33,618 nucleotides of DNA from assembly GCA_001788215.1 (NCBI GenBank), contig MGAO01000011.1:1-33618 (forward strand), read 5' to 3'. Made by a program: the position numbers and the translations under genes. The DNA is from Candidatus Roizmanbacteria bacterium RIFCSPLOWO2_01_FULL_40_14. GTDB lineage: Bacteria > Patescibacteriota > Microgenomatia > GCA-001788215 > 2-01-FULL-40-14. The notes below the pieces were generated by a model. It was not told the DNA's origin. It saw only the letters and a list, made by a program, of their open reading frames with translations, and did no database searches. Below are positions 2,462 to 21,827 of this stretch, one piece after another. Within the stretch, counting starts at the first letter, position 1. Each line of letters starts with the position of its first letter.

Positions 2462-4942
2462 TCAGGTCAATTCTACCTCATGTCCCCCGAATTGCCCACG
2501 CAGAGCCGATACGACTTTTCCAGTATACGAAGGATTCTTTTGGGAATCAATACGAAACTGTAATGCATCTTCTATGATTTTAGTTTTTATTTTTAACCTT
2601 TTAGCTTCTTCTACGGTCCACTTCCCTTCTCCCGATTGGGAAACCGATCCGGATATATCTTTCAAATCAGTCCCGTACTGCACATACGCATCTTTCAACC
2701 ATGAAATCAATCGAGATTCAATAACGCTTCCGTGGTTGTATACGTCGACAACGTGCGTCAGATCAAGCTTGAAAGAAGATTTTTTCAAAATTTCAAACCC
2801 CTCGCCGATTGCCTGCATCATGCCGTACTCAATACCGTTATGAATCATTTTGATAAAATGTCCAGCGCCGACTCCGTCGAAAAACCGGTATCCACGAGGA
2901 ACCGATAGATCGGCAAATATCGGTTCAAGATATTCAAATGTTTTGTGGTCGCCGCCTACCATGAGGCACGCGCCAAACCGGGCTCCTTCAGGCCCGCCTG
3001 AGATACCGACGTCAACAAGTTTGATTCCCCGTTTTTTTAATAAAGAATGCCGACGGATCGTATCATGATAATTTGAATTCCCCGCGTCAATGATGATGTC
3101 TCCTTTTTCCAAAATTTCTACTAAGCCATTGTCATTCCCGCGCAGGCGGGAATCCCCTTGAGATCCCCGATCAGGTCGGGGATGACGATTATATGATTTT
3201 CCAAACAATATTCCATCCACTGCATCTCCTGCAGAAACGGACAACAGAACCACCCGCGGCGGTTTTAATTTTTCCTTAAATTCTTTCATATCATAAATCC
3301 CTTCAATTCCTTTCCGGACAAATGATTCAGTCACATTTTTTGATCGATTGTACCCATATACTCGCCAGCCTCGATCATGCAGTTGCAGTGCAATGCCACC
3401 GCCCATTTTTCCCAATCCTACCAGTCCGATTTCTTTCTTTAACATATGCCGGTGAATGCTTGGTTTTTCATCTTCCGTAAGCATCTCAGCAATTTCGTCC
3501 GTGCCGCGTTTATACGCTCGAATCGGTACACCATTCTCCTGCCACGCATTGATAATCGCATCCGTATACTGCCACATCGGCAATACTTCATCGGTTGATA
3601 CGAACAGCGTTTGATCTCCCCGAATAACATCGAGAAGCAGCTTCTCATACTCTTCAACATACTGCCTGCGCTCTTTTGTCGTCCGATACGTAAATGCTAA
3701 CTCTTTCTGCTGAAGTTCTAGGTCCAATCCGGGCTTTTTGGAAAAAAATTTGATCATTATTTTTTCTTCCGGCTCGAGAGAGAAAACGACTTGATTGTTG
3801 TAGTCTTTTCCCGGTTCACAATTCAAACATACCTGCGGATTTCGGAAGGTGATTGTAATATCTTTTTGAGGTTTGGAAAACCCTTTCCCGCTCGATAAGT
3901 AGATGGGCACTCCATCCCAGCGATTCGATGATAAACACGCACGCGTCTTAAAGTATGTTTCAATCTGCGAGTTTGAATCAACGCCCGTGTGAGTACGGTA
4001 TCCTTCATATTGAGCCCGGATGGTCGACCGACGTACTTCGTCCCGTGTCGAAGGATTCAATGTTTGCAATAACTCGGCACGTTTTCTTCTGATTGCATCA
4101 GCGGTCAGTGTGCCGGGATTGTCCATTGTCACCAAGGCCAACATCTGCAGTAAATGGTTTTGTCCGACATCTCTGAAGGCTCCGACACTTTCATAAAACG
4201 ATCCGCGCTTTGACGCATCGTTGTCTTCGAGAAGCCGGATGTCGATGCGCGAGACGAATTTATTATTCCAGGACTCCTCAAGGAAATTATTTGAAAATCG
4301 AAACGCCAAAATATTTTGAAGCATTTCTTTCCCTAAATAGTGATCGATCCGGTAAATCTGTTCTTCTTTAAAAAGATTTGACAATAATTCATCGAGTTCT
4401 TGTGCGGTTTTTAAGTCATTGCCAAATGGTTTTTCAACGAGGACCCGCGTCCACCCCTCATCGGGCGAGCAGGCCCGCCTGCCAGCGCCTGAGCGCAGCG
4501 ATGGCGGGCAGGGACCAGTCAGGTGTGAATTGTGAAGATGGGTCAAAATAGTCTTGTAGTAACTCGGAGGAACCGCCAGATAAAACAGTTTGTTTGAACA
4601 GACATGCCAACGCTTATCGACCAAGCCCATTTCCCTGGCTAACTTGTCATAATCTCCTCGTTGTTCAAACTGTCCCTGATGATAAAAAAATAATTGGCAA
4701 AATGCTTCGAGTTTACGCTTGTGCTCTGGGGTCTCTGCATAATCCTCCGCAAGTTTAAACACATGCTCACGAAACTGTTCATTGGTCAACGGGCGTCTGG
4801 CTACCCCAATGATATGAAACATTTTGGGAAGTTTATCTTTCGCGTATAAATGAAAGAGTGCCGGTGTAATCTTCCGGGCCATGAGATCCCCCGTTGCACC
4901 ATAGACGATAACGACGGTCGGAATGTTGAATTTGTCAGGCAT
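2462..4942 (-). CDS. zwf-gnd: Glucose-6-phosphate dehydrogenase / 6-phosphogluconate dehydrogenase fusion
   Basis: One 826-residue frame carries two enzymes of the oxidative pentose phosphate pathway. Residues 1-495 are Zwf: nucleotide-binding GATGDL at 15-20, RVLVEKPFG at about 166-174 and active-site RIDHYLGK at 198-205. Residues 500-826 are Gnd: GLVGLGKMGGGIA near 506-518, AGNSNYHD at 620-627, GGPEGARFG at 649-657 and FIKMIHNGIEYG at 696-707. There is no stop between the parts; Gnd starts with its own Met (residue 500), so internal initiation is possible. No 6-phosphogluconolactonase is encoded here. Two palindromes add peptides: residues 144-164 in Zwf and 583-605 in Gnd. The transaldolase gene lies just upstream on the same strand. 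Both family calls are firm; whether the product stays fused is unknown. Confidence 0.93.
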   Translation of the reverse strand: MPDKFNIPTVVIVYGATGDLMARKITPALFHLYAKDKLPKMFHIIGVARRPLTNEQFREHVFKLAEDYAETPEHKRKLEAFCQLFFYHQGQFEQRGDYDKLAREMGLVDKRWHVCSNKLFYLAVPPSYYKTILTHLHNSHLTGPCPPSLRSGAGRRACSPDEGWTRVLVEKPFGNDLKTAQELDELLSNLFKEEQIYRIDHYLGKEMLQNILAFRFSNNFLEESWNNKFVSRIDIRLLEDNDASKRGSFYESVGAFRDVGQNHLLQMLALVTMDNPGTLTADAIRRKRAELLQTLNPSTRDEVRRSTIRAQYEGYRTHTGVDSNSQIETYFKTRACLSSNRWDGVPIYLSSGKGFSKPQKDITITFRNPQVCLNCEPGKDYNNQVVFSLEPEEKIMIKFFSKKPGLDLELQQKELAFTYRTTKERRQYVEEYEKLLLDVIRGDQTLFVSTDEVLPMWQYTDAIINAWQENGVPIRAYKRGTDEIAEMLTEDEKPSIHRHMLKKEIGLVGLGKMGGGIALQLHDRGWRVYGYNRSKNVTESFVRKGIEGIYDMKEFKEKLKPPRVVLLSVSAGDAVDGILFGKSYNRHPRPDRGSQGDSRLRGNDNGLVEILEKGDIIIDAGNSNYHDTIRRHSLLKKRGIKLVDVGISGGPEGARFGACLMVGGDHKTFEYLEPIFADLSVPRGYRFFDGVGAGHFIKMIHNGIEYGMMQAIGEGFEILKKSSFKLDLTHVVDVYNHGSVIESRLISWLKDAYVQYGTDLKDISGSVSQSGEGKWTVEEAKRLKIKTKIIEDALQFRIDSQKNPSYTGKVVSALRGQFGGHEVELT
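3131..3186. repeat. Double palindrome inside the Gnd half
   Basis: Two stem units, ATTCCCGC/GCGGGAAT and ATCCCCGA/TCGGGGAT, are bounded by GTCAT and ATGAC, so the whole element is also an inverted repeat. It is translated in frame as NRHPRPDRGSQGDSRLRGND within the coenzyme-binding domain. Confidence 0.88.
4464..4524. repeat. GC-rich imperfect palindrome inside the Zwf half
   Basis: GCCCGCCTGCCAGCGCC is mirrored imperfectly by GCGATGGCGGGCAGGG. The element is in frame and encodes PCPPSLRSGAGRRACSPDEG just before the conserved RVLVEKPFG strand. Confidence 0.75.
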
Positions 4943-8701: not shown

Positions 8702-9634
8702 ATGATACGAAAAAAAGGGGTATTGAGTATAGTCGCTCTGGCATTTTTAAGCGTGATACTCGTTCGAGCCGTTCCTTTGGCTCGCGCTCAATCACCAAGG
8801 CCGGCAAATTCCACCATGATACGCTCAGCTGACCCAGAGCTGGCGAGCGGGAGTGCTTCCCTTGCATCTGAAGCAGCAGAACTGGAAGAATTGCTCAAGG
8901 AAAATATTACTCAACCTGAACAGATTGAGCAAAAAAGCGAAATACTTGAAGTATTTGCCAAGCGTCCGGCAAACAAACCATCACTTACTAACTTTTTTGC
9001 CTATACCGTACAAAGCGCGGTACGCGCCGGCGTCCCGGCAAACACGATTATACTCATTTTACTGTTGCCGTTTCTGGCAACGGCTGCGGTGCTGATCCGC
9101 TATGTCGTCGGCCTTCCCTCGTTGGGCATACTATTCCCCATTGCTCTTTCGATTACGCTTCTTGCCACGGGAATTACTATTGGTGCGGCACTTCTCATCA
9201 CCATTATTCTGGCTACAACGATTGCACAAATGCTTCTCAAGAAAATTCGCATTATGCATATGCCGAAATTGGCATTATCTATTCTTATGGTTTCAATATT
9301 TGTGTTCGCAACGCTCGTTATAGGCGTATCCTATGGACAAATTGCCATCCGTAGCTTGTCCATTTTCCCGGTACTGCTTCTCATACTCTTATCAGAACGC
9401 ATTGTGGCTATTCAGCTCGAAAGGAAACTCGGTGAAACTCTTTTGATCGCGGGAACGAGTATCGGTTTGGGAATTATCGGATTTTACCTTCTTTCCTGGA
9501 AAATGCTTCAAAACTTTATTATCCTCTATCCCGAAGCGATCTTTCTCCTTATTCCGTTTAATATTATCGTTGGACGCTACTTTGGACTGAGAATAACGGA
9601 ATACTTCCGGTTTAAAGATGTGAAGGAACGATAA
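8702..9634 (+). CDS. UUP1-type 7TM membrane protein lacking the transglutaminase-like domain
   Basis: A 310-residue membrane protein. Residues 1-30 form a signal peptide or first helix (VALAFLSVILVRAVPLARAQ). Residues 31-110 are a short extracytoplasmic linker rich in Ala/Glu. Residues about 115-300 form seven hydrophobic segments with the family signature RYVVGLPSLGILFPIAL and a C-terminal RYFGLRITEYFRFK. In better-known members an inactive transglutaminase-like domain of a few hundred residues precedes the helices; here it is missing. The family is found next to ATP-grasp ligase genes, as here: the stop and the next ATG overlap (TAATG at 9632-9636), so the two are translationally coupled. 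The biochemical role is unknown. A leaderless -10 box fixes the start. Confidence 0.82.
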   Translation: MIRKKGVLSIVALAFLSVILVRAVPLARAQSPRPANSTMIRSADPELASGSASLASEAAELEELLKENITQPEQIEQKSEILEVFAKRPANKPSLTNFFAYTVQSAVRAGVPANTIILILLLPFLATAAVLIRYVVGLPSLGILFPIALSITLLATGITIGAALLITIILATTIAQMLLKKIRIMHMPKLALSILMVSIFVFATLVIGVSYGQIAIRSLSIFPVLLLILLSERIVAIQLERKLGETLLIAGTSIGLGIIGFYLLSWKMLQNFIILYPEAIFLLIPFNIIVGRYFGLRITEYFRFKDVKER

Positions 9635-10998
9635 TGGCTGTTTCTCAAAACATTCTCGGTATGAACGCACGAAATTACCTGTATATTAGGAAGTATAATG
9701 TTCGTGATTCAAAGCGCGTGGCCGATGACAAACTGTTAACGAAGCGGCGAATGATCAGAAACGCCATCGCTACGCCGAAGCTTCTGGCTACCTTTCGAAG
9801 CAGAAAAGAGATGAGAGATTTTAATTGGAGTAGTCTGCCGACTGACGGATTTGCTATAAAACCGGCGCGCGGATATGGCGGCGGCGGCATCATAGTATTT
9901 AAGAAATGGGAAGGATCCTCAGGAACTACCGTATCGGGCGAACAGGTTGACATACACTATATCGAAAATCATCTACTGGACATATTGGACGGCGCCTTTT
10001 CGCTTCAGTATCTGCCTGACTACGCGTTTATTGAAGAACGAATCCATCTCCATCCGTTTTATAAAAAAATTTGTTCCGTGGGACTGCCGGACATCCGCAT
10101 CATCGTTTTAAATGCCATACCGATTATGGCCATGCTCAGATTACCGACTGAAGAATCACACGGTACCGCAAACCTCATGCAGGGAGCTATAGCGCTCGGC
10201 ATTGATATGCGCACCGGCATAACGAATTATGCGTATAAAAAACACGGCACAACACCGCGGTTTATCCCCGGAACAAAAACAAAACTCAGAGGACTCAAAA
10301 TACCGAAATGGAACGAACTTCTCCTCCTTGCTGCAAAAGCACAGCAAGCGAGTAAATTGGGATATGCCGGCATTGATTTGGTGCATGACGGCGAAAAAGG
10401 ACCGCTCGTTTTAGAAATTAACGCACGTCCCGGACTTTCTATTCAAAGCGCCAACCGCACCTCTTTGAGAACTCGTCTGGAGCGCGTTGAAAACATGCAT
10501 CATATAACGCCTGAGCGGGGCGTTGAAATGGCGAAATCACTCTTTGTCTCGGCCTTTTCTGAAAAAGTAAAAACAAATCCGAAAACTGTGGGCGTTATAG
10601 AACAAGTTGTTCTGGAAGGTGAACGGCTCATCAAAGCAGTCGATGCAAAAGTCGACACGGGGGCATTTCGCACCTCAATAGACAAACAGCTGGTTTCTGA
10701 ACTCGGATTCCCCAAGTCAGATAAAGAAGTACAGGTACAATCGGCAAGCGGTGTTCAAACCCGAGAGACTATCAATGCTACGTTCCATTTGAGAGGCGTG
10801 AAAATCAAATCTGTCGCTTCCGTGACCGACCGCAGTCATTTAAAATATCCCGTTATTATTGGACGAAGAGACTTAAAAGGTTTTCTCGTAGATCCCACGA
10901 TAAATGCTCCTGACGAGTCTTCTGATTCTATGGAATTAGATCTCCAGTCAGAAGAGACGAATTCCGAACTGAAGAAGTCTCGCACAATAAACCCATAA
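9634..10998 (+). CDS. ATP-grasp (RimK-like) amino-acid ligase fused to a retropepsin-like (RimB-type) protease
   Basis: A 454-residue fusion. Residues 1 to about 300 are an ATP-grasp domain of the 'alpha-L-glutamate ligase-like' group: NILGMNARNYLYIRKYN, KPARGYGGGGI (glycine loop), GLPDIRIIV, and the metal-binding LVLEINARPGLSIQSAN. Residues about 315-425 are a retropepsin-like domain of the RimB/'ATP-dependent zinc protease' family: DAKVDTGAFRTSID with the catalytic Asp in DTGA, and a second half ending YPVIIGRRDLKGFLVDP. Such ligases and proteases are often adjacent genes; here they are one chain, joining an amino-acid-adding and an amide-cleaving module. AAGGA before the ATG and the TAATG overlap indicate coupling to the 7TM gene. 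Substrate unknown; Glu addition is inferred only from family relatives. Confidence 0.87.
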   Translation: MAVSQNILGMNARNYLYIRKYNVRDSKRVADDKLLTKRRMIRNAIATPKLLATFRSRKEMRDFNWSSLPTDGFAIKPARGYGGGGIIVFKKWEGSSGTTVSGEQVDIHYIENHLLDILDGAFSLQYLPDYAFIEERIHLHPFYKKICSVGLPDIRIIVLNAIPIMAMLRLPTEESHGTANLMQGAIALGIDMRTGITNYAYKKHGTTPRFIPGTKTKLRGLKIPKWNELLLLAAKAQQASKLGYAGIDLVHDGEKGPLVLEINARPGLSIQSANRTSLRTRLERVENMHHITPERGVEMAKSLFVSAFSEKVKTNPKTVGVIEQVVLEGERLIKAVDAKVDTGAFRTSIDKQLVSELGFPKSDKEVQVQSASGVQTRETINATFHLRGVKIKSVASVTDRSHLKYPVIIGRRDLKGFLVDPTINAPDESSDSMELDLQSEETNSELKKSRTINP

Positions 10999-11041
10999 AA
11001 AGTAGCAGTCAGTCAACAAAGAGAAAGTGAACGTATAGTTT

Positions 11042-13027
11042 TTAGATAGCTTGTTTTAATTGCTGAATTTTCGCTTTTACTTTTTGTATTTCTTTCGAAT
11101 TTTCTGATGGATCTGCAGCTCTCACATAACGAGTATATGCATCTATTGCTTCAGCTACTTTGTTTTCATGTACCAATGCGTTTCCTAAATTATTATAAAA
11201 GTAATCAATATTTGGATTGTTTTTTATCGCTTCACGATAACATTGTATTGCTTCATCGAATTTTCCTTGAGTCGATAAAACATATCCAAGAGCGTTATAT
11301 GTATTATCTGTGTCTGGATCTATGGATATGGCTTTGCGATATGCCGCTAGCGCATCATTATCATGCTCGAGAGTTAACAATGAGTTACCAAAATTATTAA
11401 AAATATCAGGATCGCGTGGATTAAATGAAGCAGCCAATCTATTTGCTTCATTTGCTTCTTTGATTCGTCCGAGATCAGATAATGTTAATGCAGTATTTTT
11501 TAGTAATTGAATCTTTTGACCCATTTCCGATTCAAAGAGAGTAAGTAATACCTTGTGATTTCGGGGAATCCACGGAAATCTAAGATCAAAAGGGCCACGA
11601 ACGACCTCAAACATTAATCCTTCAGTTGTAGGGTGGTTACTGAAATGAATAATGTCTTTGACAGTTAGGGGATTACCATCCATATTTGTACCTTGGATCA
11701 TTGGGTCGGTTACGTACCTATTATTTCCTCTGAATAACATATCCCTCCAAAGCACTTGTTCATCAGAGGTGAGGACGAATAATAGCGAATGTCGTGGAAG
11801 ATTACCCACAAGGTACACAATCCCTGCTTCTTTCAATAATGATCCCCCCAGTATCGACGCACCGACGCAATTAATATTTTGAGTTGCCACAATCTCTGAC
11901 GGGTTCTGTGAGTTTTCTTCTCGTGGAAATCGACTGACAGCATCTTGAATTTTATCTGCTATTTCCCGTTCCTTAGCACTGATTCTTTCTATATCTCCAG
12001 TTTGACGAAGAGCTTCAAGTTCTGCTTTCAGTTCAGGCAGTCTTAAGACTTCAGTTAGCTTTCTTTGCTCAAGATGAAGATCGATTCCGGCTTTTTCAAA
12101 AAGTGTATTCACCGCGTATTTCCATCCCGCTTCTCGCGTATCGGTTACCACTTTTTCAAGCCCTCGAAGAAAAACAGCAGAGACGAGCTCTCTTTTTGGC
12201 GTTTCAATAGTATTTTTCAGTGACTGTTCGACTTTGCGAAGGAATCCGCTGTGAATGGGAGCATTTATAAGCCACGGCTTGACGGGAGGTTTTCGGCTCT
12301 GTAATTCACCTGTCTGTGGATTCTCACTCAATAGAAACGCTTTTTCTGATACTCGGAAGAACTGTGCAAGCGTATCACATCTTTCCTGTTCGACAAGTTC
12401 TTCCATACTCTTCGGATCTATGGCCGCCTTTCGTTCGACTGAGGCTTTGCGAGCTTTATAGAGACGATCGCCTGCTAAGAAGCGGTCGATCTCATCCGTC
12501 TCTGAAGGAGTAAGCTCTTTTTTTGAAATTTCATCTACTGATGCAAACTGTTCTGGAGATTTTCTCTCTATGAGTGACTGTCCGTATCCATAGAATTCTT
12601 CGGCGAGTCCATGGGCAATTTCCCGTCCGTTAGTTATAAAGTTGAGCCGTTTTGCAATATATATACCTGCGTTTTGAAACTCTTTTCCGAGTATCAGGAT
12701 TTTTTCCTTCGCAGTGTCTTTCTTCTCCGGCTTTTGTGCGTAGGTGTCGTGATCCACTGTTTCCATGATCCCGACCATCTCCCACAAAGCAAGATCATGT
12801 GGAATATAGAGCGTTTGCTTCCCATCTATATTTCTCTCAAGGATCCCTTTCACACCCCGTTCTTCCCATGTTTTACGATCGACATATTGAGGCTCGATTG
12901 AGTCATTTATCTCACACCATTTTGAGAAGAAAAACTGGACGGCAGGATTTTCAAAGGGTTTCTGTTCAATGACAGGACGTATTTCAAACATCGGCTGGTT
13001 TGATGACTGTTCATCCACCTGTTCCAT
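11042..13027 (-). CDS. TPR protein with a transglutaminase-like Cys-His-Asp region
   Basis: A 661-residue, apparently cytosolic protein. Residues 1-370 are charged and helical without a family I recognise. Residues 380-435 carry NINCVGASILGG, then PRHSLLFVLTSDEQVLWRD: Cys387, His413 and Asp429 fit the transglutaminase-like order (C...H-x-W/L-x-x-V...W-x-x-D). Residues about 505-637 hold three to four tetratricopeptide repeats (NNFGNSLLTLEHDNDALAAY and YNALGYVLSTQGKFDEAIQC). The combination suggests a thiol peptidase or amidase with a protein-binding tail. It lies between the ligase/protease fusion and a DUF1704 gene, transcribed towards the former. A TAAAAT box 6 bases before the ATG supports the start. 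The TPR call is firm; the catalytic call rests on spacing of three residues. Confidence 0.72.
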   Translation of the reverse strand: MEQVDEQSSNQPMFEIRPVIEQKPFENPAVQFFFSKWCEINDSIEPQYVDRKTWEERGVKGILERNIDGKQTLYIPHDLALWEMVGIMETVDHDTYAQKPEKKDTAKEKILILGKEFQNAGIYIAKRLNFITNGREIAHGLAEEFYGYGQSLIERKSPEQFASVDEISKKELTPSETDEIDRFLAGDRLYKARKASVERKAAIDPKSMEELVEQERCDTLAQFFRVSEKAFLLSENPQTGELQSRKPPVKPWLINAPIHSGFLRKVEQSLKNTIETPKRELVSAVFLRGLEKVVTDTREAGWKYAVNTLFEKAGIDLHLEQRKLTEVLRLPELKAELEALRQTGDIERISAKEREIADKIQDAVSRFPREENSQNPSEIVATQNINCVGASILGGSLLKEAGIVYLVGNLPRHSLLFVLTSDEQVLWRDMLFRGNNRYVTDPMIQGTNMDGNPLTVKDIIHFSNHPTTEGLMFEVVRGPFDLRFPWIPRNHKVLLTLFESEMGQKIQLLKNTALTLSDLGRIKEANEANRLAASFNPRDPDIFNNFGNSLLTLEHDNDALAAYRKAISIDPDTDNTYNALGYVLSTQGKFDEAIQCYREAIKNNPNIDYFYNNLGNALVHENKVAEAIDAYTRYVRAADPSENSKEIQKVKAKIQQLKQAI

Positions 13028-13033
13028 ACGCTC

Positions 13034-13039
13034 ATTTTA
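13034..13039 (-). promoter_or_regulatory. -10 box TAAAAT, leaderless spacing
   Basis: TAAAAT on the minus strand, 6 bases before the ATG at 13027. Confidence 0.45.
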
Positions 13040-13239
13040 TCACAACAGCTAAGGTTGTTATCTAGAATAAAAATCGGGAAATTGGCACCTTTTGTTTAAG
13101 TGTGGTACACTGATATCCTTTCAGTACCTTCGTATCCTATAATGTTTTTACTACGTACGGTGCTTAAAGTCATGGACTTTAGGTCTTTTAAAAAGCTTCG
13201 TGTTTCAGCACGAACGTAGTCTACATTTCTCGGGTCGGG
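13040..13239 (+). other. Divergent intergenic region with hairpins and a TATAAT box
   Basis: This about 210-base spacer between divergent genes holds a hairpin GGTAC/GTACC (13104-13128), a TATAAT at 13138-13143, a hairpin AAAGTC/GACTTT (13166-13180) and a hairpin TTCGTG/CACGAA (13197-13214). A transcript from the TATAAT would have a structured leader of about 100 bases before the gene at 13252, in addition to the leaderless box at 13240. No riboswitch class or small RNA recognised. Confidence 0.35.
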
Positions 13240-13245
13240 TATATT
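13240..13245 (+). promoter_or_regulatory. -10 box TATATT, leaderless spacing
   Basis: TATATT ends 6 bases before the ATG at 13252. This selects ATG 13252 over the in-frame TTG at 13249. Confidence 0.5.
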
Positions 13246-13251
13246 CTTTTG

Positions 13252-14352
13252 ATGAAGCAAAGTATTACAAAATCTAAAAAAACCGATTTATTACATTTTG
13301 CAGAAGATCTCACGAGGCTCTTGAGTCACGTACAAATAGATCCGTCTATTCTCACGCCGATAAATTATCGTTCGGAACTGCGAAAATTCTTCAAATCCAA
13401 TGTATACAATCCACAGTTTATTTACCCTGATACAACAAAACAATCTGTCAATACGATTCTTGCAGGATTATGGAGACGACTTATTAACCTTTCTTTACCC
13501 TCTGATATAGAATACTATATTGAATCTCTCATTTATCATACTGCTCTCCTCCAACGGGCAAGACTTCACATTGGCACTCCTCTTTTCTCCCGCTTTGCAG
13601 AAAAACTTTATGCCTTAAATGCACTCACTGCTCAAAAGTATAATGATTGCCTTCCGACGGTGACCTTTGCTGATACCGAAGGCGCTCGCATCTATAATGC
13701 TTATGAAATACAGGAATATGCAGAGCGCTATATTGCCTCGCAATCTCACTTGCATTCTATTGGCGCCTGTATCGACCACCGAACGAATTTCAGTGTTCGA
13801 GCTGGAATCAGCAATTTGTATATCGGCTCACGAGTCAGACGAAATGAACAGAATGTCGTGCGGCTTATGGTACACGAAGTCGAATCACATCTTCTGCAAA
13901 AAAGAAATTCAAGGGCGGGTGGGCCACTTTATTTATTACGAACACAACCAACCCGTGAATTGTACGCTGAAGGTATGGCGGTTTATAACGAGGTAACAAC
14001 AGGCACCATTACTGAAAATGCCTACAAGATGTACTTTTATCGATTGCAGGCCGTGGCTATGATGGATAAAAGTTTTCGTGAAATATATTCCTATCTTTCA
14101 TCATATATGTCAAAAAATAAGGCATTTATTACGGCCTTTCGAGTCAAACGGGGTATATCTGATACGAGTAAACCGGGAGGATATCCAAAAGATGCGCTGT
14201 ATGTAATGGGGTACAAAAAAGTTTCCGATTATCTCCTTTCAGGCGGTAATATAGAGTTTTTGTATCGTACACAAGTTCCCCAATTGGGCAAATTGCTCAG
14301 TAAATATGATCTCCTTTCTTCTGTCCCCTGCCAAATGCCCCAGTTTTTATAA
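13252..14352 (+). CDS. DUF1704 (MATCAP-like) metallocarboxypeptidase candidate, short form
   Basis: A 366-residue protein with the two-part zinc motif of the DUF1704 family: HEVESH (residues about 208-213) and YAEGMAVYNE (about 238-247), the counterpart of the family's EEGLA/QEGLA motif. Further downstream FRVKRGISD...GGYPKDALYVMGY matches the conserved FRG...FTKD.xY block also seen in the gene at 15805. Eukaryotic relatives (MATCAP/TMCP) remove C-terminal tyrosine or glutamate from tubulin. Bacterial members are of unknown function. No signal peptide, so cytosolic. The two DUF1704 proteins here share only these motifs. A leaderless -10 box decides the ATG start. It is followed after 17 bases by the membrane metalloprotease gene on the same strand. 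Confidence 0.72.
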   Translation: MKQSITKSKKTDLLHFAEDLTRLLSHVQIDPSILTPINYRSELRKFFKSNVYNPQFIYPDTTKQSVNTILAGLWRRLINLSLPSDIEYYIESLIYHTALLQRARLHIGTPLFSRFAEKLYALNALTAQKYNDCLPTVTFADTEGARIYNAYEIQEYAERYIASQSHLHSIGACIDHRTNFSVRAGISNLYIGSRVRRNEQNVVRLMVHEVESHLLQKRNSRAGGPLYLLRTQPTRELYAEGMAVYNEVTTGTITENAYKMYFYRLQAVAMMDKSFREIYSYLSSYMSKNKAFITAFRVKRGISDTSKPGGYPKDALYVMGYKKVSDYLLSGGNIEFLYRTQVPQLGKLLSKYDLLSSVPCQMPQFL

Positions 14353-14357
14353 TTTGT

Positions 14358-14363
14358 TATGCT
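14358..14363 (+). promoter_or_regulatory. -10 box TATGCT, leaderless spacing
   Basis: TATGCT, 6 bases before the ATG at 14370, lying in the 17-base spacer after the DUF1704 gene. Confidence 0.4.
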
Positions 14364-14369
14364 TATTGC

Positions 14370-15773
14370 ATGACACCCATACCGCCTCCGCTTCCCGTTC
14401 CGAAACCACCCCGACATCATACATGGCTATTAGTGGTGATTGCCGTAATCGTCGGTCTTGTCCTATTATCACTTGCTGCGGTAGGAATATTCGTTTATTT
14501 TGTCTTAATGACTTCTCAGACTTTTCTTGAGGAACCGGTGATTAATTCTCAATCAGAATCATCCACTAATGATATAACTCACGAAATTGCTCTTCAGCTG
14601 TCGGAAGCTCAAGATAATACGTTTTCTCTTCATAATAATTTTTCCTATCTGTTTCAACTGGAACCATCACAAGAAGAATTCTTGGGTGTTGTGGTGCCAC
14701 CCGATGATGCTAAGCGTGTAACCGCAGTTCGCGGCATTCCTTTTTATGAGACAGAATGTCGACCGTTTCAGGAAAATGAAATCACACAGCTTGCTCTTTT
14801 CCTCAATACGCTCCCGAAAGAAGTTCTGGAACTGCGACCGAAAGGAATTGTTTCCGCATGCCTTGATCGACTTAATCTTTCAATTGATCCGTTGACGAAC
14901 GCATTGACCAGCGGCCCGTATATTTATCTGGGAGATGAATTTTTTTCAGGAACTCTTTTTTCAGGCGAGAATTCTGCAAATGAAAAACTCACCATTTTTA
15001 CCCATGAATATGCCCATGTCCTGCAATATTATTATGTTCATCACTACTGGCTGCAGCGGAAAAGAACCAGTGCCTATGATTACGATACGTCCTCAACCGT
15101 TATTTATGACTTTGCGCGCACCGTTGGCTGGCAGCAGTATCCAACTGGTCAAGAACCTTCATTTTTTGATGGTGATTACACATGGCAACTAGCTAAAACA
15201 TCTGATGCACAAATGACCACTGACTATGGAAAAGAGAGCGGCCCGACGGAAGATTTTGCCGAGAGCTTCGGACTGGTAGCAGCCGGACAGCCACAAACCA
15301 TATCAGAGGCACGAAAGAATTATATAGTACATTTCTTGAATGCCGAGGAATCCACGTTTACGCAAGGGGTTGTACCGCAATACCCTACCAGCATCCGCGT
15401 CAGTTTTGACTACGAGTCGTTCCTGTCCGATAGGGTCAACCAACTGCCCCTCCAAGGAAAAACAGTAACTGATACTGAACAATGGGGCGTTGATAAAATC
15501 AATTCTTTTGAAACGATTGTTCAGTATTATCAGGATGAATTGACTCGTCGTTCTTTTGAACCTGTTCAACAAATAACGATTCAGCCGGGAGCATATGATG
15601 ACCAGTTTGCATCGGGAGTTTATGTTGCCGAAGGGAAAACATATGTCGTACTCGTTATTGGTACGATTACCACACAGGTAACGGAAGTTCCGACTGGAGA
15701 AAATTCATATGTGGTTCAAAGAAGCACGTTGACACCGGAGCTTTTTAACGTCACTGTGTTGACGTATGAGTAA
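14370..15773 (+). CDS. Membrane-anchored HExxH metalloprotease-like protein
   Basis: A 467-residue protein. A Pro-rich cytoplasmic start (PIPPPLPVPKPP) leads into one transmembrane helix at about residues 18-46; the rest should be outside the cell. HEYAH at 212-216 (FTHEYAHVLQYYY) is a zinc-metalloprotease motif, and EDFAESF at 294-300 supplies the third, Glu-type ligand in gluzincin-like spacing. The C-terminal part (about 330-467) is a separate beta-rich region with alternating Val/Thr. I do not recognise a named family. It may act as the surface protease arm of the surrounding peptide-modification genes, but this is inferred from position. A leaderless box suggests its own promoter. Confidence 0.72.
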   Translation: MTPIPPPLPVPKPPRHHTWLLVVIAVIVGLVLLSLAAVGIFVYFVLMTSQTFLEEPVINSQSESSTNDITHEIALQLSEAQDNTFSLHNNFSYLFQLEPSQEEFLGVVVPPDDAKRVTAVRGIPFYETECRPFQENEITQLALFLNTLPKEVLELRPKGIVSACLDRLNLSIDPLTNALTSGPYIYLGDEFFSGTLFSGENSANEKLTIFTHEYAHVLQYYYVHHYWLQRKRTSAYDYDTSSTVIYDFARTVGWQQYPTGQEPSFFDGDYTWQLAKTSDAQMTTDYGKESGPTEDFAESFGLVAAGQPQTISEARKNYIVHFLNAEESTFTQGVVPQYPTSIRVSFDYESFLSDRVNQLPLQGKTVTDTEQWGVDKINSFETIVQYYQDELTRRSFEPVQQITIQPGAYDDQFASGVYVAEGKTYVVLVIGTITTQVTEVPTGENSYVVQRSTLTPELFNVTVLTYE

Positions 15774-15804
15774 ATAGGATAATTATCACTAATAATGAAG
15801 TGGG

Positions 15805-17163
15805 TTAATCGGACTCAATATCTTCATCAGAAATTCCCAACTGATCAAGAATCCAAAGATGTCGATTGTTTGAAGGATCATATTTTCCAACATTTAACCG
15901 AAACATTTCATCGGGATTCTCACGCACTACATTCCATGTCGCGATATTTCCTTCACGATATGCAATATCTTTCGTAAAACACGCTCCTGCCACACAATTT
16001 GTACCTCGAAAGGTTCTTACCGTACGGTTCCATGCACTCGTCTGAGCTGTAGAAAGTGCTGATTGATAATCTTTACCACTCAACAACTCTTGTAATAGAA
16101 ATTGTTTTTCAAGAATTTCATAGACTTTTCTAAAATCTCGTTCCATACCATCTAGTCCATATGCAAGGCTGATTGCTAAATGCGCTTCCAATCCTGCAAA
16201 ATCTTCCATTTTATCACCCAGAGATTGCTCCCTCATAGTAGCAACACCTTCATCTCCTCTTTCATATCGATCTAAACCAAGTCCGAGCAATTTAAGTTTG
16301 CTCCTTTCGCCATTAATTCTTCGCGCTACGTGAGTACCGATTTCATGTACTATGAGTATGCGCAATTTTGCAAATGGTAATCTTCGAGCTTCGGGTACTT
16401 TAACCGTTTGGTTTTCTTGATCAACGCTAATAGCAGATTTACTACTCGTGTCTACAACAACGTTCCACCCTTCTCCATGAAGAGTTGAAAGCGCTTGATC
16501 GAAAACTGCTTTAATTGCTTCTGCATCAAATTCTTCCTGGCTTATCGGTAAAGAGACTAAATCACCTGCTGTTTTAAGAGTTGCATCTCGAACCATATCT
16601 ATAGTTTCTTGATTAGGTAATTCGCCAATAGAATATCCAGTGAGATTCGCCGGAATAAGAGCGCTTAATTCTTCAGCTGTTTTCCGAACGTGTTCGTCAT
16701 CCGAGCAAGAAGCTTCTTCACATACCTGTTTGAGTGCTTGTACCGTATAGGCAAAAATGTCAGAAGACGGTTTGCCATATACAAATTCTGAATATTTCCT
16801 GAACCGTCTTGTGTCGCCGGTATGAGCAGCACGAAGCAATCGGACTTCGGCTATTTTTTCGTTCAGTCTCCATCTATATGCTTGTTTAACAACGGAATTT
16901 TGTTCTTGAGCTAATACATCTTCTTTCAGTAACAACAACTCCTTTTCTTGAGTATCGAGCCGGATTGCATCAATCTTTGGATAATCTAAAAGTGGATTTT
17001 CAATTTCTCCTTTAAGAAATTTATCTTTTTGTTCTTCTCGGTATCTCTTATCTCCATCTAAATATTCATACGCCTGAAATGATCCGTATCGGGCAAACCT
17101 GCCGTACCAGGAAGAGTCAACTTGTTCTGGTTGTAGTTGTATAGGAGCGTCAATATTTCCCAT
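15805..17163 (-). CDS. DUF1704 (MATCAP-like) metallocarboxypeptidase candidate, long form
   Basis: A 452-residue protein whose second half is a standard DUF1704 domain: GEGWNVVVDTSSKSAISV, a KVPEARRLPF strand, HEIGTHVARRING at 273-285 (zinc ligands His273 and His277, Glu274), DEGVATMRE at 304-312 (third ligand Glu305) and FRGTNCVAGACFTKDIAYREG at about 385-405. The first 180 residues are helical and charged and look unrelated to the short paralogue at 13252. Predicted to be a cytosolic zinc carboxypeptidase; relatives in animals trim tyrosine or glutamate from tubulin tails. Transcribed convergently with the metalloprotease gene and divergently from the PIG-L gene. A TATACT box 6 bases upstream fixes the start. 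Confidence 0.8.
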   Translation of the reverse strand: MGNIDAPIQLQPEQVDSSWYGRFARYGSFQAYEYLDGDKRYREEQKDKFLKGEIENPLLDYPKIDAIRLDTQEKELLLLKEDVLAQEQNSVVKQAYRWRLNEKIAEVRLLRAAHTGDTRRFRKYSEFVYGKPSSDIFAYTVQALKQVCEEASCSDDEHVRKTAEELSALIPANLTGYSIGELPNQETIDMVRDATLKTAGDLVSLPISQEEFDAEAIKAVFDQALSTLHGEGWNVVVDTSSKSAISVDQENQTVKVPEARRLPFAKLRILIVHEIGTHVARRINGERSKLKLLGLGLDRYERGDEGVATMREQSLGDKMEDFAGLEAHLAISLAYGLDGMERDFRKVYEILEKQFLLQELLSGKDYQSALSTAQTSAWNRTVRTFRGTNCVAGACFTKDIAYREGNIATWNVVRENPDEMFRLNVGKYDPSNNRHLWILDQLGISDEDIESD

Positions 17164-17169
17164 TTATAT

Positions 17170-17175
17170 AGTATA
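17170..17175 (-). promoter_or_regulatory. -10 box TATACT, leaderless spacing
   Basis: TATACT on the minus strand, 6 bases before the ATG at 17163. Confidence 0.55.
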
Positions 17176-17210
17176 CGCTACCAGATCAAAAATACCCCAA
17201 TTCTATATGA

Positions 17211-17216
17211 TATACT
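17211..17216 (+). promoter_or_regulatory. Extended -10 box TGATATACT
   Basis: TGnTATACT, 9 bases before the ATG at 17226; a 2-3 base leader at most. Confidence 0.5.
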
Positions 17217-17225
17217 CAAAATCTT

Positions 17226-17900
17226 ATGAAAACAAAGAAGGTGCTTCTCGTTTTTTCCCATCCCGACGATGAAAGCTTTGGTCCCGGAGGAACCATCGCC
17301 CTCTGGGCAAAACGGGGGCACGAACTGCATCTGGTCTGTGCGACCAAGGGCGAAATCGGCAACAACCACACAAATGACAAAACAGAACTCATTCGTGAAA
17401 AAGAACTCAAAAAAGCGGCAGAGATTTTGGGTATAAAAAAAGTGAACTTTCTCGGATACAAAGACGGACATATTAGCAATTGCCACATACCACAGCTGGC
17501 GCAGAAAATCAGTGCCAAAATCAATCAGTTCAAACCTCATGTTATTATGACCTTTAATTTAAATGGTGTTTCCGGACATCTCGATCATGTCGCTGTTGCG
17601 AATGCCACCACGAGTGCGTTTGATAAAACGGGTTTTGCCGAAAAGCTCTATTACTATTCATTGCCTAAAGCGTACACGGACACGATTGAAGATTACTTTA
17701 TACACTTTCCGGACGGTTCAGAAGACCATGAGTTTGATGAAATCGTGAACATATCAGACGTGTGGGATACGAAAATCGCGGCTATGATGGCACATGAAAG
17801 CCAAAAGGAAGATATTGATCGTATTCTGGCAGGGTACAAAAAATTCCCGCAGAAAAAAGACCACTTCATGGTACGTATAAGAAAGGCAAAGAATTCATGA
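17226..17900 (+). CDS. PIG-L (LmbE-like) family deacetylase
   Basis: A 224-residue member of the PIG-L/LmbE zinc-dependent N-deacetylase family, usually acting on N-acetylglucosamine-containing lipids, thiols or antibiotics. The metal-binding HPDDESFGPGG is at 12-22; TKGEIGNN follows, and GHLDHVAVANA (about 116-126) supplies the third ligand. Length fits the family. No signal peptide, so cytosolic or peripheral. It converges with the ATP-grasp gene; the two stop codons share the palindrome TCATGA (17895-17900). The sugar substrate is unknown; a cell-envelope glycan or glycolipid is likely given the GT4 and LCP genes in the window. Confidence 0.9.
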   Translation: MKTKKVLLVFSHPDDESFGPGGTIALWAKRGHELHLVCATKGEIGNNHTNDKTELIREKELKKAAEILGIKKVNFLGYKDGHISNCHIPQLAQKISAKINQFKPHVIMTFNLNGVSGHLDHVAVANATTSAFDKTGFAEKLYYYSLPKAYTDTIEDYFIHFPDGSEDHEFDEIVNISDVWDTKIAAMMAHESQKEDIDRILAGYKKFPQKKDHFMVRIRKAKNS

Positions 17901-18719
17901 CGTTACTATTTCATCTACCACGAGCTGTGCTGTTTTTTTCGGCATGATATCTTGGGCACGATTAAACTGCGGACTCGAATTTACTTCAAGAAAATAGTAT
18001 CTGCCGTCTTTTCCTTGCAGAAAATCAACACCGGCAAAATCCAGTCCGATTTCTTTGGTTATTTTCAAGGCATATTCTTTCAGAATCGACGGAATGTGTT
18101 TTATCGGCTCCCCACCTTTAACATACAATCGATGGTCTGAATGCATGAACATTCCCCGCTCAAAACCATAGAGTATTTTTCCCTTGAGCACATTGATTCT
18201 GATATCCCGCTTGGCATCGATATATTTCTGCAGAATATGATGATGAAGAGTAGTTTTTTTGAGTTGATCTTCAAGTTCTTTTGCTGAAGAAACAAGGTAG
18301 TTGCTTCGGGAACGTGAGCTCACGCGCTTTTTTAACACAAGAGGAAATGGCAGTAAATCCCATAGCACCCGCTTTTTATTGGAAAAATAGTATATCGGCG
18401 GAGTTTGAATACCGAGCCGGTTGCACAAAAGTCCCTGGTAAAACTTATCGTGAAAATAGGGAGAACACGTCAGATATGCTTTCAGATCAAATATAAATTG
18501 CGTTCCGTACCGTTCGGCCAAATTCCGTGCAATCACTGCGTAATTACGGGTAAAATAGGGAGTATTCCAAGGACTTCTTAATAAGAGTCTGTCTTCAGGA
18601 TTGATAGACAACTTACGCTTTCGAACAGAGAAGTTGTCGGCAAGAACGGTGACTTCCTTATAATAATACCAGTCATATGCAATTCTTCTCCTCACCAGTT
18701 CCTTCTCGATCAGCTGCAT
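17895..18719 (-). CDS. RimK-like ATP-grasp ligase
   Basis: A 274-residue ATP-grasp protein of the RimK/glutathione-synthetase-like group. LPFPLVLKKRVSSRSRSNYLV (about 123-143) holds the ATP-binding lysines, LQKYIDAKRDIRINVLKGK the domain middle, and DFAGVDFLQGKDGRYYFLEV followed by NSSPQF the Mg-binding C-terminal part. Such enzymes join an amino acid or peptide to a carboxylate using ATP. The ATG at 18719 may not be the true start: the frame stays open upstream and reads HLYIFANEADYS, a plausible first beta strand, but there is no ATG, GTG or TTG. An ATT at 18756-18758 lies 5 bases after a TATTAT box. Second ligase of the island; distinct from the fused one at 9634. Confidence 0.82.
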   Translation of the reverse strand: MQLIEKELVRRRIAYDWYYYKEVTVLADNFSVRKRKLSINPEDRLLLRSPWNTPYFTRNYAVIARNLAERYGTQFIFDLKAYLTCSPYFHDKFYQGLLCNRLGIQTPPIYYFSNKKRVLWDLLPFPLVLKKRVSSRSRSNYLVSSAKELEDQLKKTTLHHHILQKYIDAKRDIRINVLKGKILYGFERGMFMHSDHRLYVKGGEPIKHIPSILKEYALKITKEIGLDFAGVDFLQGKDGRYYFLEVNSSPQFNRAQDIMPKKTAQLVVDEIVTS

Positions 18720-20762: not shown

Positions 20763-21827
20763 ATGTTCGTTTATCGTAACAAAAATAATATAGTATTATT
20801 TATTCTTGGAAATATAATTGGACTTACCGTTATCATCACTACACTGATTTATCTATACCTTTCTACATTTCTTTCAAATGCCCATCTCACCTTTTCTGAA
20901 CTAAAATCAATCGTTTCCTCTGCCTATTCTCAAAAAGATCAATTTGAAAATAGACACGTCACCTTTCTCATCCTCGGCCTGGACCAGAGAAGCGATGCTT
21001 TGGAATCAACATTATTAACAGACACAATAATTCTTGCGTCACTTACAACTGACAACTTACCTGCCTCGCCGGCAGGCGGGCAACTGACAACTATCTCCAT
21101 TCCGCGCGATCTTTGGATTCATGAACTCAAAACAAAAGTAAATGCCCTGTATTTTTACGGTGAGCAGCGTGATAATACGACGGGACCTGAATTTACGATG
21201 GAAGAATTGGAACGAATAATGGGCGCTTCCATTGATTACTATGTGGTGATGAATTACAACGACCTTGATGAATTGGTAGATTTAGTCGGCGGTATTGAAG
21301 TAGATGTACCTCAATCCTTCATTGATGAGAAATATCCTAATCCGGACTATTTAAGTGATCAAACAAAGCCTATTTATCAGACAGTTCAATTTAATAAAGG
21401 TTTGCAGAATTTTGATGGAAAACGGGCACTTGCGTATGTCCGCTCCCGTCATAGTGAAAGTGAGGAAGGGTCTGATAGTTCCCGATCAAAACGACAGGCC
21501 CAGGTATTTCAGGGCATTATGAAAAAACTTTCGAACCGATCACTGATAACAAATCCGAAGCAAATGGGAAACATATATCGATTTTGGAAAGAATCAGTGA
21601 GCACGGATCTTTCCGACCATGAAGCTCTTGCACTGGGATTGAATCTGACACCGAATAAAATTGAAATGAACACCGTGTCGATTCCCGTCGGCATTTCAAC
21701 TGATTCACAAGCAATTTTGATAAACCCTCCCGTCTCAAAATACGGTCTCTGGGTCTGGGAACCACGGGACAGGAGTTGGGAGGAATTGAAAGAATTTATC
21801 GGAAACACATTGGATTCCCACGAATGA
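20763..21827 (+). CDS. LytR-CpsA-Psr (LCP) family cell-envelope ligase
   Basis: A 354-residue LCP protein. Residues 10-36 form one transmembrane helix (VLFILGNIIGLTVIITTLIY...), the rest is extracytoplasmic. Conserved features: VTFLILGLDQRSD (about 66-78), LLTDTIILASL (about 84-94), ISIPRDLWI (111-119), DELVDLVGGIEVDVPQSF and GKRALAYVRSRHSE with the Arg residues that bind the polyprenyl pyrophosphate. LCP enzymes transfer glycopolymers from lipid carriers to the wall or to proteins. A small palindrome adds NLPASPAGGQ in front of the SIPRD strand, flanked by a 12-base direct repeat. The last residues (DSHE) come from a repeat region that continues downstream. Confidence 0.9.
   Translation: MFVYRNKNNIVLFILGNIIGLTVIITTLIYLYLSTFLSNAHLTFSELKSIVSSAYSQKDQFENRHVTFLILGLDQRSDALESTLLTDTIILASLTTDNLPASPAGGQLTTISIPRDLWIHELKTKVNALYFYGEQRDNTTGPEFTMEELERIMGASIDYYVVMNYNDLDELVDLVGGIEVDVPQSFIDEKYPNPDYLSDQTKPIYQTVQFNKGLQNFDGKRALAYVRSRHSESEEGSDSSRSKRQAQVFQGIMKKLSNRSLITNPKQMGNIYRFWKESVSTDLSDHEALALGLNLTPNKIEMNTVSIPVGISTDSQAILINPPVSKYGLWVWEPRDRSWEELKEFIGNTLDSHE
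21046..21092. repeat. Small palindrome flanked by 12-base direct repeats, inside LCP gene
   Basis: CCTGCC/GGCAGG arms (21060-21065 and 21071-21076) lie between two identical copies of CAACTGACAACT at 21046-21057 and 21081-21092. The segment is translated in frame as NLPASPAGGQ. Confidence 0.75.

What the first reader, a model, noticed from the sequence alone, without database searches (positions are those of the whole stretch)
13252..17163. Two deeply divergent DUF1704 proteins 1.5 kb apart
Both have HExxxH-type and EG zinc motifs and the FRG/FTKD-like block, but the short form changes key positions (HEVESH for HEIGTH; AEGMA for EEGVA) and the long form has an extra 180-residue N-terminal region. 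Two specialised enzymes, for example for different terminal residues, are a simple explanation.
Basis: partly seen in the sequence, partly recalled or inferred. Interest (0 to 1): 0.5.

Follow-up and report, generated by a model that had tools for sequence, protein, structure and literature searches.

The report
Two MATCAP erasers beside ATP-grasp ligases
A tiny bacterium carries two very different copies of a metal-dependent enzyme, known in humans for trimming tubulin tails, in a gene island with enzymes that probably add amino acids to proteins, which suggests a bacterial add-and-remove tagging cycle.

Summary
The observation largely holds. Both ORFs are DUF1704 proteins, now Pfam MATCAP: 84 and 103 bits (cut-off 27), predicted folds matching human MATCAP at Z 19-20, all four zinc-site residues present. 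They belong to separate subfamilies (58 of 337 aligned residues identical). Two details are wrong: the long form has about 64, not 180, extra residues before the motif, and it reads DEGVA, not EEGVA.

The surroundings were missed. The island at 8702-18719 also encodes a 7TM (RloB-like) protein, an ATP-grasp ligase fused to a retropepsin-like domain, and a RimK-like ligase. In 379 phylum genomes, 67 have MATCAP and this ligase, and in 61 of them they lie within 10 kb or are fused. ATP-grasp genes are within two genes of, or fused to, 47 of 63 MATCAPs examined, against 5 of 379 control genes.

Best explanation: both are carboxypeptidase 'erasers' opposing ATP-grasp amino-acid ligases, as human MATCAP-type enzymes oppose TTL/TTLL ligases. 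The removed residue (Glu is likeliest) and the substrates are unproven. About half of the long form's close relatives lack a nearby ligase. Fused ligase-MATCAP proteins in relatives make the idea testable.

The parts
13252..14352 (+). MATCAP-family (DUF1704, PF08014) metallo-carboxypeptidase, short form, 366 aa
   Evidence: Pfam 84 bits; AF2 pLDDT 92.9, Z 19.9 to human MATCAP 7z6s; sister copy in G001 directly behind the ATP-grasp gene
13873..13890 (+). HEVESH motif of the short form (H208, E209, H213)
   Evidence: invariant columns H208 E209 H213; within helix 199-222 of the model
13969..13971 (+). predicted third metal ligand Glu240 of AEGMA, short form
   Evidence: invariant E240; helix 232-250
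15805..17163 (-). MATCAP-family metallo-carboxypeptidase, long form, 452 aa
   Evidence: Pfam 103 bits; AF2 pLDDT 92.0, Z 19.3 to human MATCAP 7z5g
16330..16347 (-). HEIGTH motif of the long form (H273, E274, H278)
   Evidence: invariant columns; within helix 264-286 of the model
16249..16251 (-). predicted third metal ligand Glu305 of DEGVA, long form
   Evidence: invariant E305; helix 300-315
8702..9634 (+). 7TM protein (7TM_transglut, RloB-like C-terminal part), 310 aa, signal-like N-terminus, no transglutaminase domain found
   Evidence: PF14402 E 2.2e-20; NCBIfam RloB matched only at 311-504 of 508; 55% identical in L070
9634..10998 (+). ATP-grasp ligase (ATPgrasp_ST, RimK-related) fused to a retropepsin-like RimB/RloA-type domain; overlaps the 7TM gene by one base
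   Evidence: PF14397 E 1.3e-64 at 13-287, Zn_protease/aspartyl-protease families at about 334-422; DTGA motif at residue 341, EIN at 261; 62% identical in L070
17895..18719 (-). RimK-like ATP-grasp ligase, 274 aa, same strand as the long MATCAP, one gene away
   Evidence: PF08443 E 6.5e-15; EVN at residue 245; distant relatives (23-32% identical) sit next to or near MATCAP genes in L166, L136, L168, L080, L074, L055 and others
11042..13027 (-). TPR protein lying between ligase and short MATCAP; absent at that place in the one sister genome, so a probable insertion; membership of the system uncertain
   Evidence: TPR families; L070 has ligase end 5120 and MATCAP start 5129
14370..15773 (+). zincin-like protein with N-terminal transmembrane-like segment, HEYAH at residue 212 and DFAES at 295; starts 18 bases after the short MATCAP ends; role unknown
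   Evidence: sequence; no Pfam or NCBIfam family
17226..17900 (+). PIG-L family deacetylase between the long MATCAP and RimK; probably not part of the system
   Evidence: PF02585 E 1.8e-33

Best explanation
Both proteins are metal-dependent carboxypeptidases of the MATCAP fold that act as erasers in a reversible amino-acid tagging system. ATP-grasp ligases of the same island (9634-10998 and 17895-18719) would add one or more amino acids, most likely glutamate, to the C-terminus (or a side chain) of protein or peptide substrates. The retropepsin-like domain fused to the first ligase would cut such a chain inside, and the MATCAPs would trim it from the end. The short form is the partner of the 7TM/ATP-grasp-retropepsin operon. 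The long form, whose lineage is scattered across groups in a way that suggests horizontal transfer, belongs to a lineage found in part beside RimK-type ligases, in some with RimB, and in some beside the same 7TM operon. Shown here: family, predicted fold, intact zinc-site residues, and gene linkage and fusion to ATP-grasp ligases across bacteria and archaea. Inferred: catalysis, exo-trimming, opposition to the ligase. Guessed: glutamate as the residue, and the identity of the substrates.
For: Family and fold; profile match to human MATCAP E 3.1e-48 for the short group and 8.7e-13 for the long group. Zinc-site residues in 126 of 126. Linkage: in 379 phylum genomes 67 of 85 MATCAP genomes have the 7TM family against 42 of 294 without MATCAP (Fisher p 7.5e-29); 67 of 85 have a strong ATPgrasp_ST gene against 47 of 294 (p 5.1e-27). 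Of the 67 with both, 45 are under 1.5 kb or fused, 16 within 10 kb, 4 on different contigs, 2 farther. ATP-grasp within two genes or fused: 47 of 63 rows (phylum set) and 39 of 68 rows (genome contigs set), against 0 of 38 control mid-genes and 5 of 379 control genes. Single polypeptides ATPgrasp_ST + MATCAP of 768-815 aa were confirmed by Pfam in 3 of 3 scanned. The RimB (PF05618) and RimK (PF08443) identities were confirmed by Pfam in L041. MATCAP beside RimB and RimK genes: L048, L049, L055 (same strand), L105, L107 (divergent), and beside a gene matching both the RimB and RimK models in L106. Plasmids of Aminobacter and Mesorhizobium carry N-formylglutamate amidohydrolase - QEGLA (MATCAP) - 'glutathione synthetase' head to tail, 2 of the 4 regions opened. 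Published: the eukaryotic relatives remove C-terminal Tyr/Glu and shorten polyglutamate chains made by TTLL ligases (PMC10499314, passages). RimB removes glutamates added by RimK, and RimB-RimK hybrids exist (PMC11957791, abstract and passages).
Against: 16 of 63 and 29 of 68 MATCAP rows had no ATP-grasp hit within two genes (some lie near contig ends, many are DPANN archaea). In the tight long-form clade only 11 of 21 had one, by my count of the tree labels. The window's RimK counts there by construction, since its model was built from itself, and two others are weak hits. 47 of 114 genomes with the strong ligase have no MATCAP, so it is not essential to the ligase system. 2 of the 4 annotated plasmid regions (Vibrio, Pseudoalteromonas) show no ATP-grasp neighbour, though that gene table is incomplete. 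Ribosomal protein S6, the known RimK substrate, was not found in the window's genome, and S6 tails are acidic with or without MATCAP, so glutamate on S6 has no support here. The ATP-grasp models were built from genes found next to MATCAPs, which favours the test sets; the controls used the same models.
Confidence: 0.6

Rival explanations
1. One reading: two paralogous carboxypeptidases that differ mainly in the terminal residue they remove, without dedicated ligases.
For: Deep split and subfamily-specific loop residues: K to F in KRG (32 of 41 long clade F; 73 of 85 others K) and replacement of DTSxPG by CxTPG-like letters. Human TMCP1 and TMCP2 differ in preference (PMC10499314, passages).
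Against: Does not explain the linkage and fusion to ATP-grasp ligases. Not exclusive of the best explanation.
Confidence: 0.2
2. The island makes a modified peptide or surface polymer (graspetide-like or pseudopeptide): ATP-grasps form the bonds and the MATCAPs mature the product.
For: CPR graspetide loci with ATP-grasps and metallopeptidases have been described (PMC8939145, passages); Pfam names PF14397 'sugar-transfer associated'; a LytR-CpsA-Psr gene (20763-21827) and a glycosyltransferase gene (31244-32428) are in the window.
Against: No small ORF with the TxxxTx(6-10)Dx(1-4)D signature among 206, which is weak evidence: shuffled windows gave 0.4 on average, only ATG starts were used, and some CPR precursors lack the signature. 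Fusion of ligase, retropepsin and MATCAP fits reversible tagging better than one-way maturation (inference).
Confidence: 0.12
3. The MATCAPs are ordinary peptide-scavenging peptidases and the neighbourhood is incidental.
For: 45 of 131 MATCAP rows have no ATP-grasp hit within two genes.
Against: Linkage statistics and fusions.
Confidence: 0.08

Closest known systems
Human MATCAP / TMCP1 (KIAA0895L) and TMCP2 (KIAA0895)
   Same: Same Pfam family and fold (Z 19.3-19.9), HExxxH + EG site, RG...KD..Y block; the eukaryotic enzymes remove C-terminal Tyr/Glu and shorten polyglutamate chains made by TTLL ligases (PMC10499314, passages)
   Different: No tubulin context is known for this bacterium; 18-19% identity in the structural alignments; the long form has lost the KRGxxDTSxPG letters; activity untested
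RimK-RimB ribosomal S6 polyglutamylation system
   Same: RimK-like ATP-grasp ligase with a retropepsin-like glutamate-removing protease; in some relatives MATCAP sits beside rimB and rimK; hybrid ligase-protease polypeptides known (PMC11957791, passages)
   Different: Adds a third protein, MATCAP; in the window the retropepsin is fused to an ATPgrasp_ST ligase with a 7TM partner; S6 not found in this genome
RloA-RloB-RloC osmotic stress operon of Pseudomonas (PMC12239564, passages)
   Same: 7TM RloB-like protein, ATP-grasp RloC-like ligase, retropepsin-like domain
   Different: Retropepsin fused to the ligase rather than made as a separate secreted protein; the 7TM protein lacks the transglutaminase part; MATCAP is not part of the published operon (term 'matcap' absent from that paper's main text)
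TIGR02421 QEGLA 'flavohemoglobin expression-modulating' proteins
   Same: Both window proteins match (96 and 82 bits)
   Different: Far below that equivalog's cut-off of 338.65 bits; the four proteobacterial forms opened on plasmids are longer than the short form, about 426-663 aa by their annotated coordinates

Membership tests
MATCAP (PF08014, DUF1704) | Profile score over the curated cut-off | tested here: met
   84 and 103 bits, cut-off 27
MATCAP (PF08014, DUF1704) | HExxxH and downstream Glu of the EG motif | tested here: met
   present in both; 126 of 126 aligned proteins have H, E, H, E
MATCAP (PF08014, DUF1704) | MATCAP fold | tested here: met
   predicted models: Z 19.9, rmsd 3.4, 271 aligned (short); Z 19.3, rmsd 3.7, 273 aligned (long); next entries about 12-13
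MATCAP (PF08014, DUF1704) | Human-like loop KRGxxDTSxPGxxxKDxxY | tested here: inconclusive
   short form keeps it (KRGISDTSKPGGYPKDALY), long form keeps RG, KD and Y only
MATCAP (PF08014, DUF1704) | Carboxypeptidase activity on C-terminal Tyr/Glu | not testable with these tools
   needs an assay
Rlo-type operon (RloA/B/C) | RloB with inactive transglutaminase domain plus 7TM | tested here: not met
   only the 7TM part is matched: 311-504 of 508 of the RloB model, 51 bits against a cut-off of 900
Rlo-type operon (RloA/B/C) | Separate secreted retropepsin-like protease | tested here: not met
   the retropepsin-like domain lies at the C-terminus of the ATP-grasp protein; no search for another RloA gene elsewhere in the genome was made
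RimK-RimB system | RimK-type ligase with RimB-type retropepsin | tested here: met
   as domain content only: PF08443 gene at 17895-18719, retropepsin-like domain (PF05618 31.8 bits, cut-off 27) with DTGA in 9634-10998; not as a rimB-rimK operon
RimK-RimB system | Ribosomal protein S6 as substrate | tested here: inconclusive
   PF01250 not found in this 83%-complete genome, found in 350 of 379; S6 tails acidic in most of both groups of 10
Graspetide cluster | Precursor peptide with TxxxTx(6-10)Dx(1-4)D | tested here: inconclusive
   0 of 206 small ATG-started ORFs of the window, but some CPR precursors lack the signature (PMC8939145, passage)

The most novel reading that the evidence does not exclude
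Bacteria and archaea carry the full logic of the tubulin tyrosination/glutamylation cycle: an ATP-grasp ligase as writer and a MATCAP as eraser, here with a retropepsin as second eraser, in some lineages fused into one ligase-protease-carboxypeptidase polypeptide. The window holds an island in which two MATCAP lineages serve two ATP-grasp writers of different tags.
Probability: 0.4. Interest if true: 0.8.

Novelty: new variant of a known kind. Interest (0 to 1): 0.58.

Why it matters
A tight genetic link, with outright fusions, to ATP-grasp ligases gives them a concrete, testable role: removal of ligase-added amino acids. It would also put a writer/eraser pair resembling TTLL and MATCAP into bacteria and archaea, and it names a single 800-residue protein in which both activities could be assayed together.

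Tried and rejected
Rejected: that the short form is degenerate (all ligands present, confident model). Rejected: a recent tandem duplication (17% identity, separate clades, and only the short form found in the sister genome G001). Rejected: a 180-residue extra domain in the long form. Considered and not supported: a graspetide cluster (weak test). The S6 test was inconclusive: last-10-residue Glu counts overlap between 10 genomes with MATCAP and 10 without. Both groups were picked by hand, mostly from one family (f44) and others; no statistics were run.

Not obtained: Iyer et al. 2009 (PMC3268129), the paper most likely to have foreseen ATP-grasp/peptidase links, is not held, so priority cannot be judged from it. 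Paper searches (listings only): DUF1704, 1 paper on malaria parasites; QEGLA/COG3930/PF08014, 29 papers, 15 listed, 13 of those malaria papers; MATCAP with ATP-grasp, 0 papers. The broader searches showed capped lists in which I saw no description of this link. PMC4431377 and PMC13269789 were looked at in passages only and gave nothing on bacterial MATCAPs. Fisher tests treat genomes as independent, which related genomes are not. Foldseek (short model only) gave human MATCAP chains as the only matches below E 0.001.

Selection and dropped rows: the phylum set comes from 59 stretches (L038-L096) that I chose from the places, with most fusion genes left out, plus the window. The genome contigs set has 75 loci, giving 68 rows. 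Dropped: MATCAP hits both under 250 aa and under 100 bits, and duplicates by the last 120 residues. Broken or partial genes (L084, L123, L142) were counted as found; L123, L142 and L176 give two rows each. One search used 126 of those 131.


Full report
WHAT WAS CHECKED. Both match PF08014, formerly DUF1704 and now named MATCAP, over its curated cut-off of 27 bits (84 and 103 bits), and they are the only two such genes found in the window's own genome (853 kb in 48 contigs, 83% complete). AlphaFold2 models built on alignments of relatives are confident (pLDDT 92.9 and 92.0). Both align to human MATCAP far better than to anything else listed: Z 19.9 (rmsd 3.4, 271 residues) for the short form and Z 19.3 (rmsd 3.7, 273 residues) for the long form; the next entries are at about 12-13. 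Profile searches of solved sequences return only human MATCAP for both groups at E up to 0.01. The two His and two Glu of the metal and catalytic site are present in both, and in 126 of 126 relatives aligned. So the family claim holds and the zinc-site residues are there; distances in the models were not measured.

CORRECTIONS. The long form does not have an extra 180-residue N-terminal region: 272 residues precede its HExxxH motif and 208 that of the short form, and the family domain reaches into the N-terminal half of the long form. Its second motif is DEGVA, not EEGVA. The letters called key changes in the short form (HEVESH, AEGMA) are at positions that vary in the family. What does separate the subfamilies is the loop that in human MATCAP reads KRGQTDTSLPGCFSKDQVY. 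The short form has KRGISDTSKPGGYPKDALY; in the long clade K is F in 32 of 41 (K in 73 of 85 others) and the DTSxPG stretch is replaced, while RG, KD and Y mostly stay.

TWO LINEAGES, NOT A DUPLICATION. The two proteins share 58 of 337 aligned residues. In a FastTree tree of 126 proteins the short form groups with its counterpart in G001, a genome of the same family (support 1.00), and the long form falls in a separate clade of 21 close and 41 broader members. In G001 only the short form was found (that genome is 83% complete). The long form was found in 1 of 39 other relatives, at 52% identity, but in the top 22 rows of a scan of named genomes at 37-59% identity, in many named Patescibacteria groups, which suggests horizontal transfer (inference). 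Eight of 85 phylum genomes with MATCAP have two or more MATCAP genes.

THE ISLAND. [quoted passage not shown] In G001 the order is 7TM, ligase, MATCAP with 8 bases between the last two (7TM 55%, ligase 62%, MATCAP 38% identical). So the TPR gene at 11042-13027 was probably inserted between ligase and MATCAP in the window's lineage; this rests on one sister genome. The MATCAP has diverged more than its partner.

HOW GENERAL THE LINK IS. PF08014 was found in 85 of 379 phylum genomes, the 7TM family in 109 and a strong ATPgrasp_ST gene in 114. All 109 genomes with the 7TM family have the ligase. MATCAP occurs with the ligase in 67 of 85 genomes (47 of 294 genomes without MATCAP have the ligase). 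In those 67, MATCAP and ligase are under 1.5 kb apart or fused in 45, within 10 kb in 16, on different contigs in 4 and farther in 2. By gene neighbours, 47 of 63 MATCAP rows of the phylum set and 39 of 68 of the genome contigs set have an ATP-grasp gene within two genes or are fused to one. Controls from other places of the same contigs gave 0 of 38 mid-genes and 5 of 379 genes. The ATP-grasp models were built from genes next to MATCAPs, which favours the test sets; the same models were used on the controls. The phylum set is my selection of 59 stretches plus the window. Proteins of about 800 residues carry ATPgrasp_ST and MATCAP in one chain (3 of 3 scanned by Pfam). A few of these fusions also match the RimB-type retropepsin model, weakly, at 19-22 bits. 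Long-form and related MATCAPs stand beside rimB and rimK genes in L048, L049, L055, L105 and L107 and beside a gene matching both models in L106. L119 and L114 place the long form in the same kind of 7TM-ligase island as the window, and L058 does so on the opposite strand (the RimB and RimK Pfam identities were checked on L041). Archaeal loci L158, L166, L168 and L136 and alphaproteobacterial L171 and L172 have MATCAP and an ATP-grasp gene contiguous (organisms from the record titles, the class of L171 and L172 recalled). On plasmids of Aminobacter and Mesorhizobium the order is N-formylglutamate amidohydrolase, QEGLA protein, 'glutathione synthetase'; on two gammaproteobacterial ones no ATP-grasp neighbour is annotated.

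HOW IT MOST LIKELY WORKS. The eukaryotic members remove Tyr and Glu from tubulin C-termini and shorten polyglutamate chains made by TTLL ligases (PMC10499314, passages). RimB, a retropepsin-like protease, removes glutamates that RimK adds to ribosomal protein S6 (PMC11957791, abstract and passages). That TTL/TTLL enzymes are ATP-grasp ligases is recalled knowledge. The economical reading is that the island is a reversible tagging system: ATP-grasp writers, a retropepsin that cuts inside the added chain, and MATCAPs that trim from its end. Shown: family, predicted fold, site residues, linkage, fusions. Inferred: activity and direction. Guessed: glutamate and substrates. S6 is not supported as the substrate here: it was not found in this genome although 350 of 379 phylum genomes have it, and its tail is acidic whether or not a genome has MATCAP (20 genomes).

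WHAT SPEAKS AGAINST IT. 16 of 63 and 29 of 68 MATCAP rows have no ATP-grasp hit within two genes. The tight long clade has one in 11 of 21 (counted), including the window by construction and two weak hits. 47 of 114 genomes with the ligase lack MATCAP. In the window one gene lies between the ligase and the short form and one between RimK and the long form, so operon structure here is weaker than in relatives.

KNOWN OR NEW. The fold and family are known; the Rim and Rlo systems are known (PMC11957791, PMC12239564). In the library searched I saw no description of MATCAP as a partner of these ligases: the direct search MATCAP + ATP-grasp gave 0 papers and DUF1704 gave one unrelated paper, while the broader searches were seen only as listings, several of them capped. 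The 2009 survey of amidoligases by Iyer and colleagues, cited in PMC12239564, could not be read and may contain part of it. I therefore rate it a new variant of a known kind.

Noticed in passing
window 14370-15773 (+): 467-aa protein with a transmembrane-like N-terminus, HEYAH and a later DFAES, no family in Pfam or NCBIfam; starts 18 bases after the short MATCAP ends, making a third possible metallopeptidase in the island.
   Followed up: partly
window 11042-13027 (-): 661-aa protein with C-terminal TPRs; the middle has an INCVGA...RHSLLFV...WRDM stretch that looks like a transglutaminase or cysteine-peptidase triad (my reading of the letters, no profile hit there). Absent between ligase and MATCAP in the sister genome L070.
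   Followed up: partly
L054 6872-12881: Three MATCAP genes of one clade within about 6 kb in a single genome (G317).
   Followed up: no
L176 4388-9507: Planctomycetota contig with two MATCAP genes flanking an ATP-grasp gene.
   Followed up: no
L041, L042, L045, L048, L049, L053, L055, L056, L059, L060: A recurring gene family near these long-type MATCAP genes; its L041 member is DnaJ by Pfam, so these MATCAP loci lie near a chaperone gene.
   Followed up: partly
window's own genome: Ribosomal protein S6 was not found, although 350 of 379 phylum genomes have it; the genome is only 83% complete.
   Followed up: partly
L070 6241-7017: 258-aa protein directly behind the short MATCAP in the sister genome, no Pfam match; it looks acetyltransferase-like to me; the window has another gene there.
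   Followed up: partly
window 2462-4942 (-): Glucose-6-phosphate dehydrogenase fused to 6-phosphogluconate dehydrogenase domains in one 826-aa protein.
   Followed up: no
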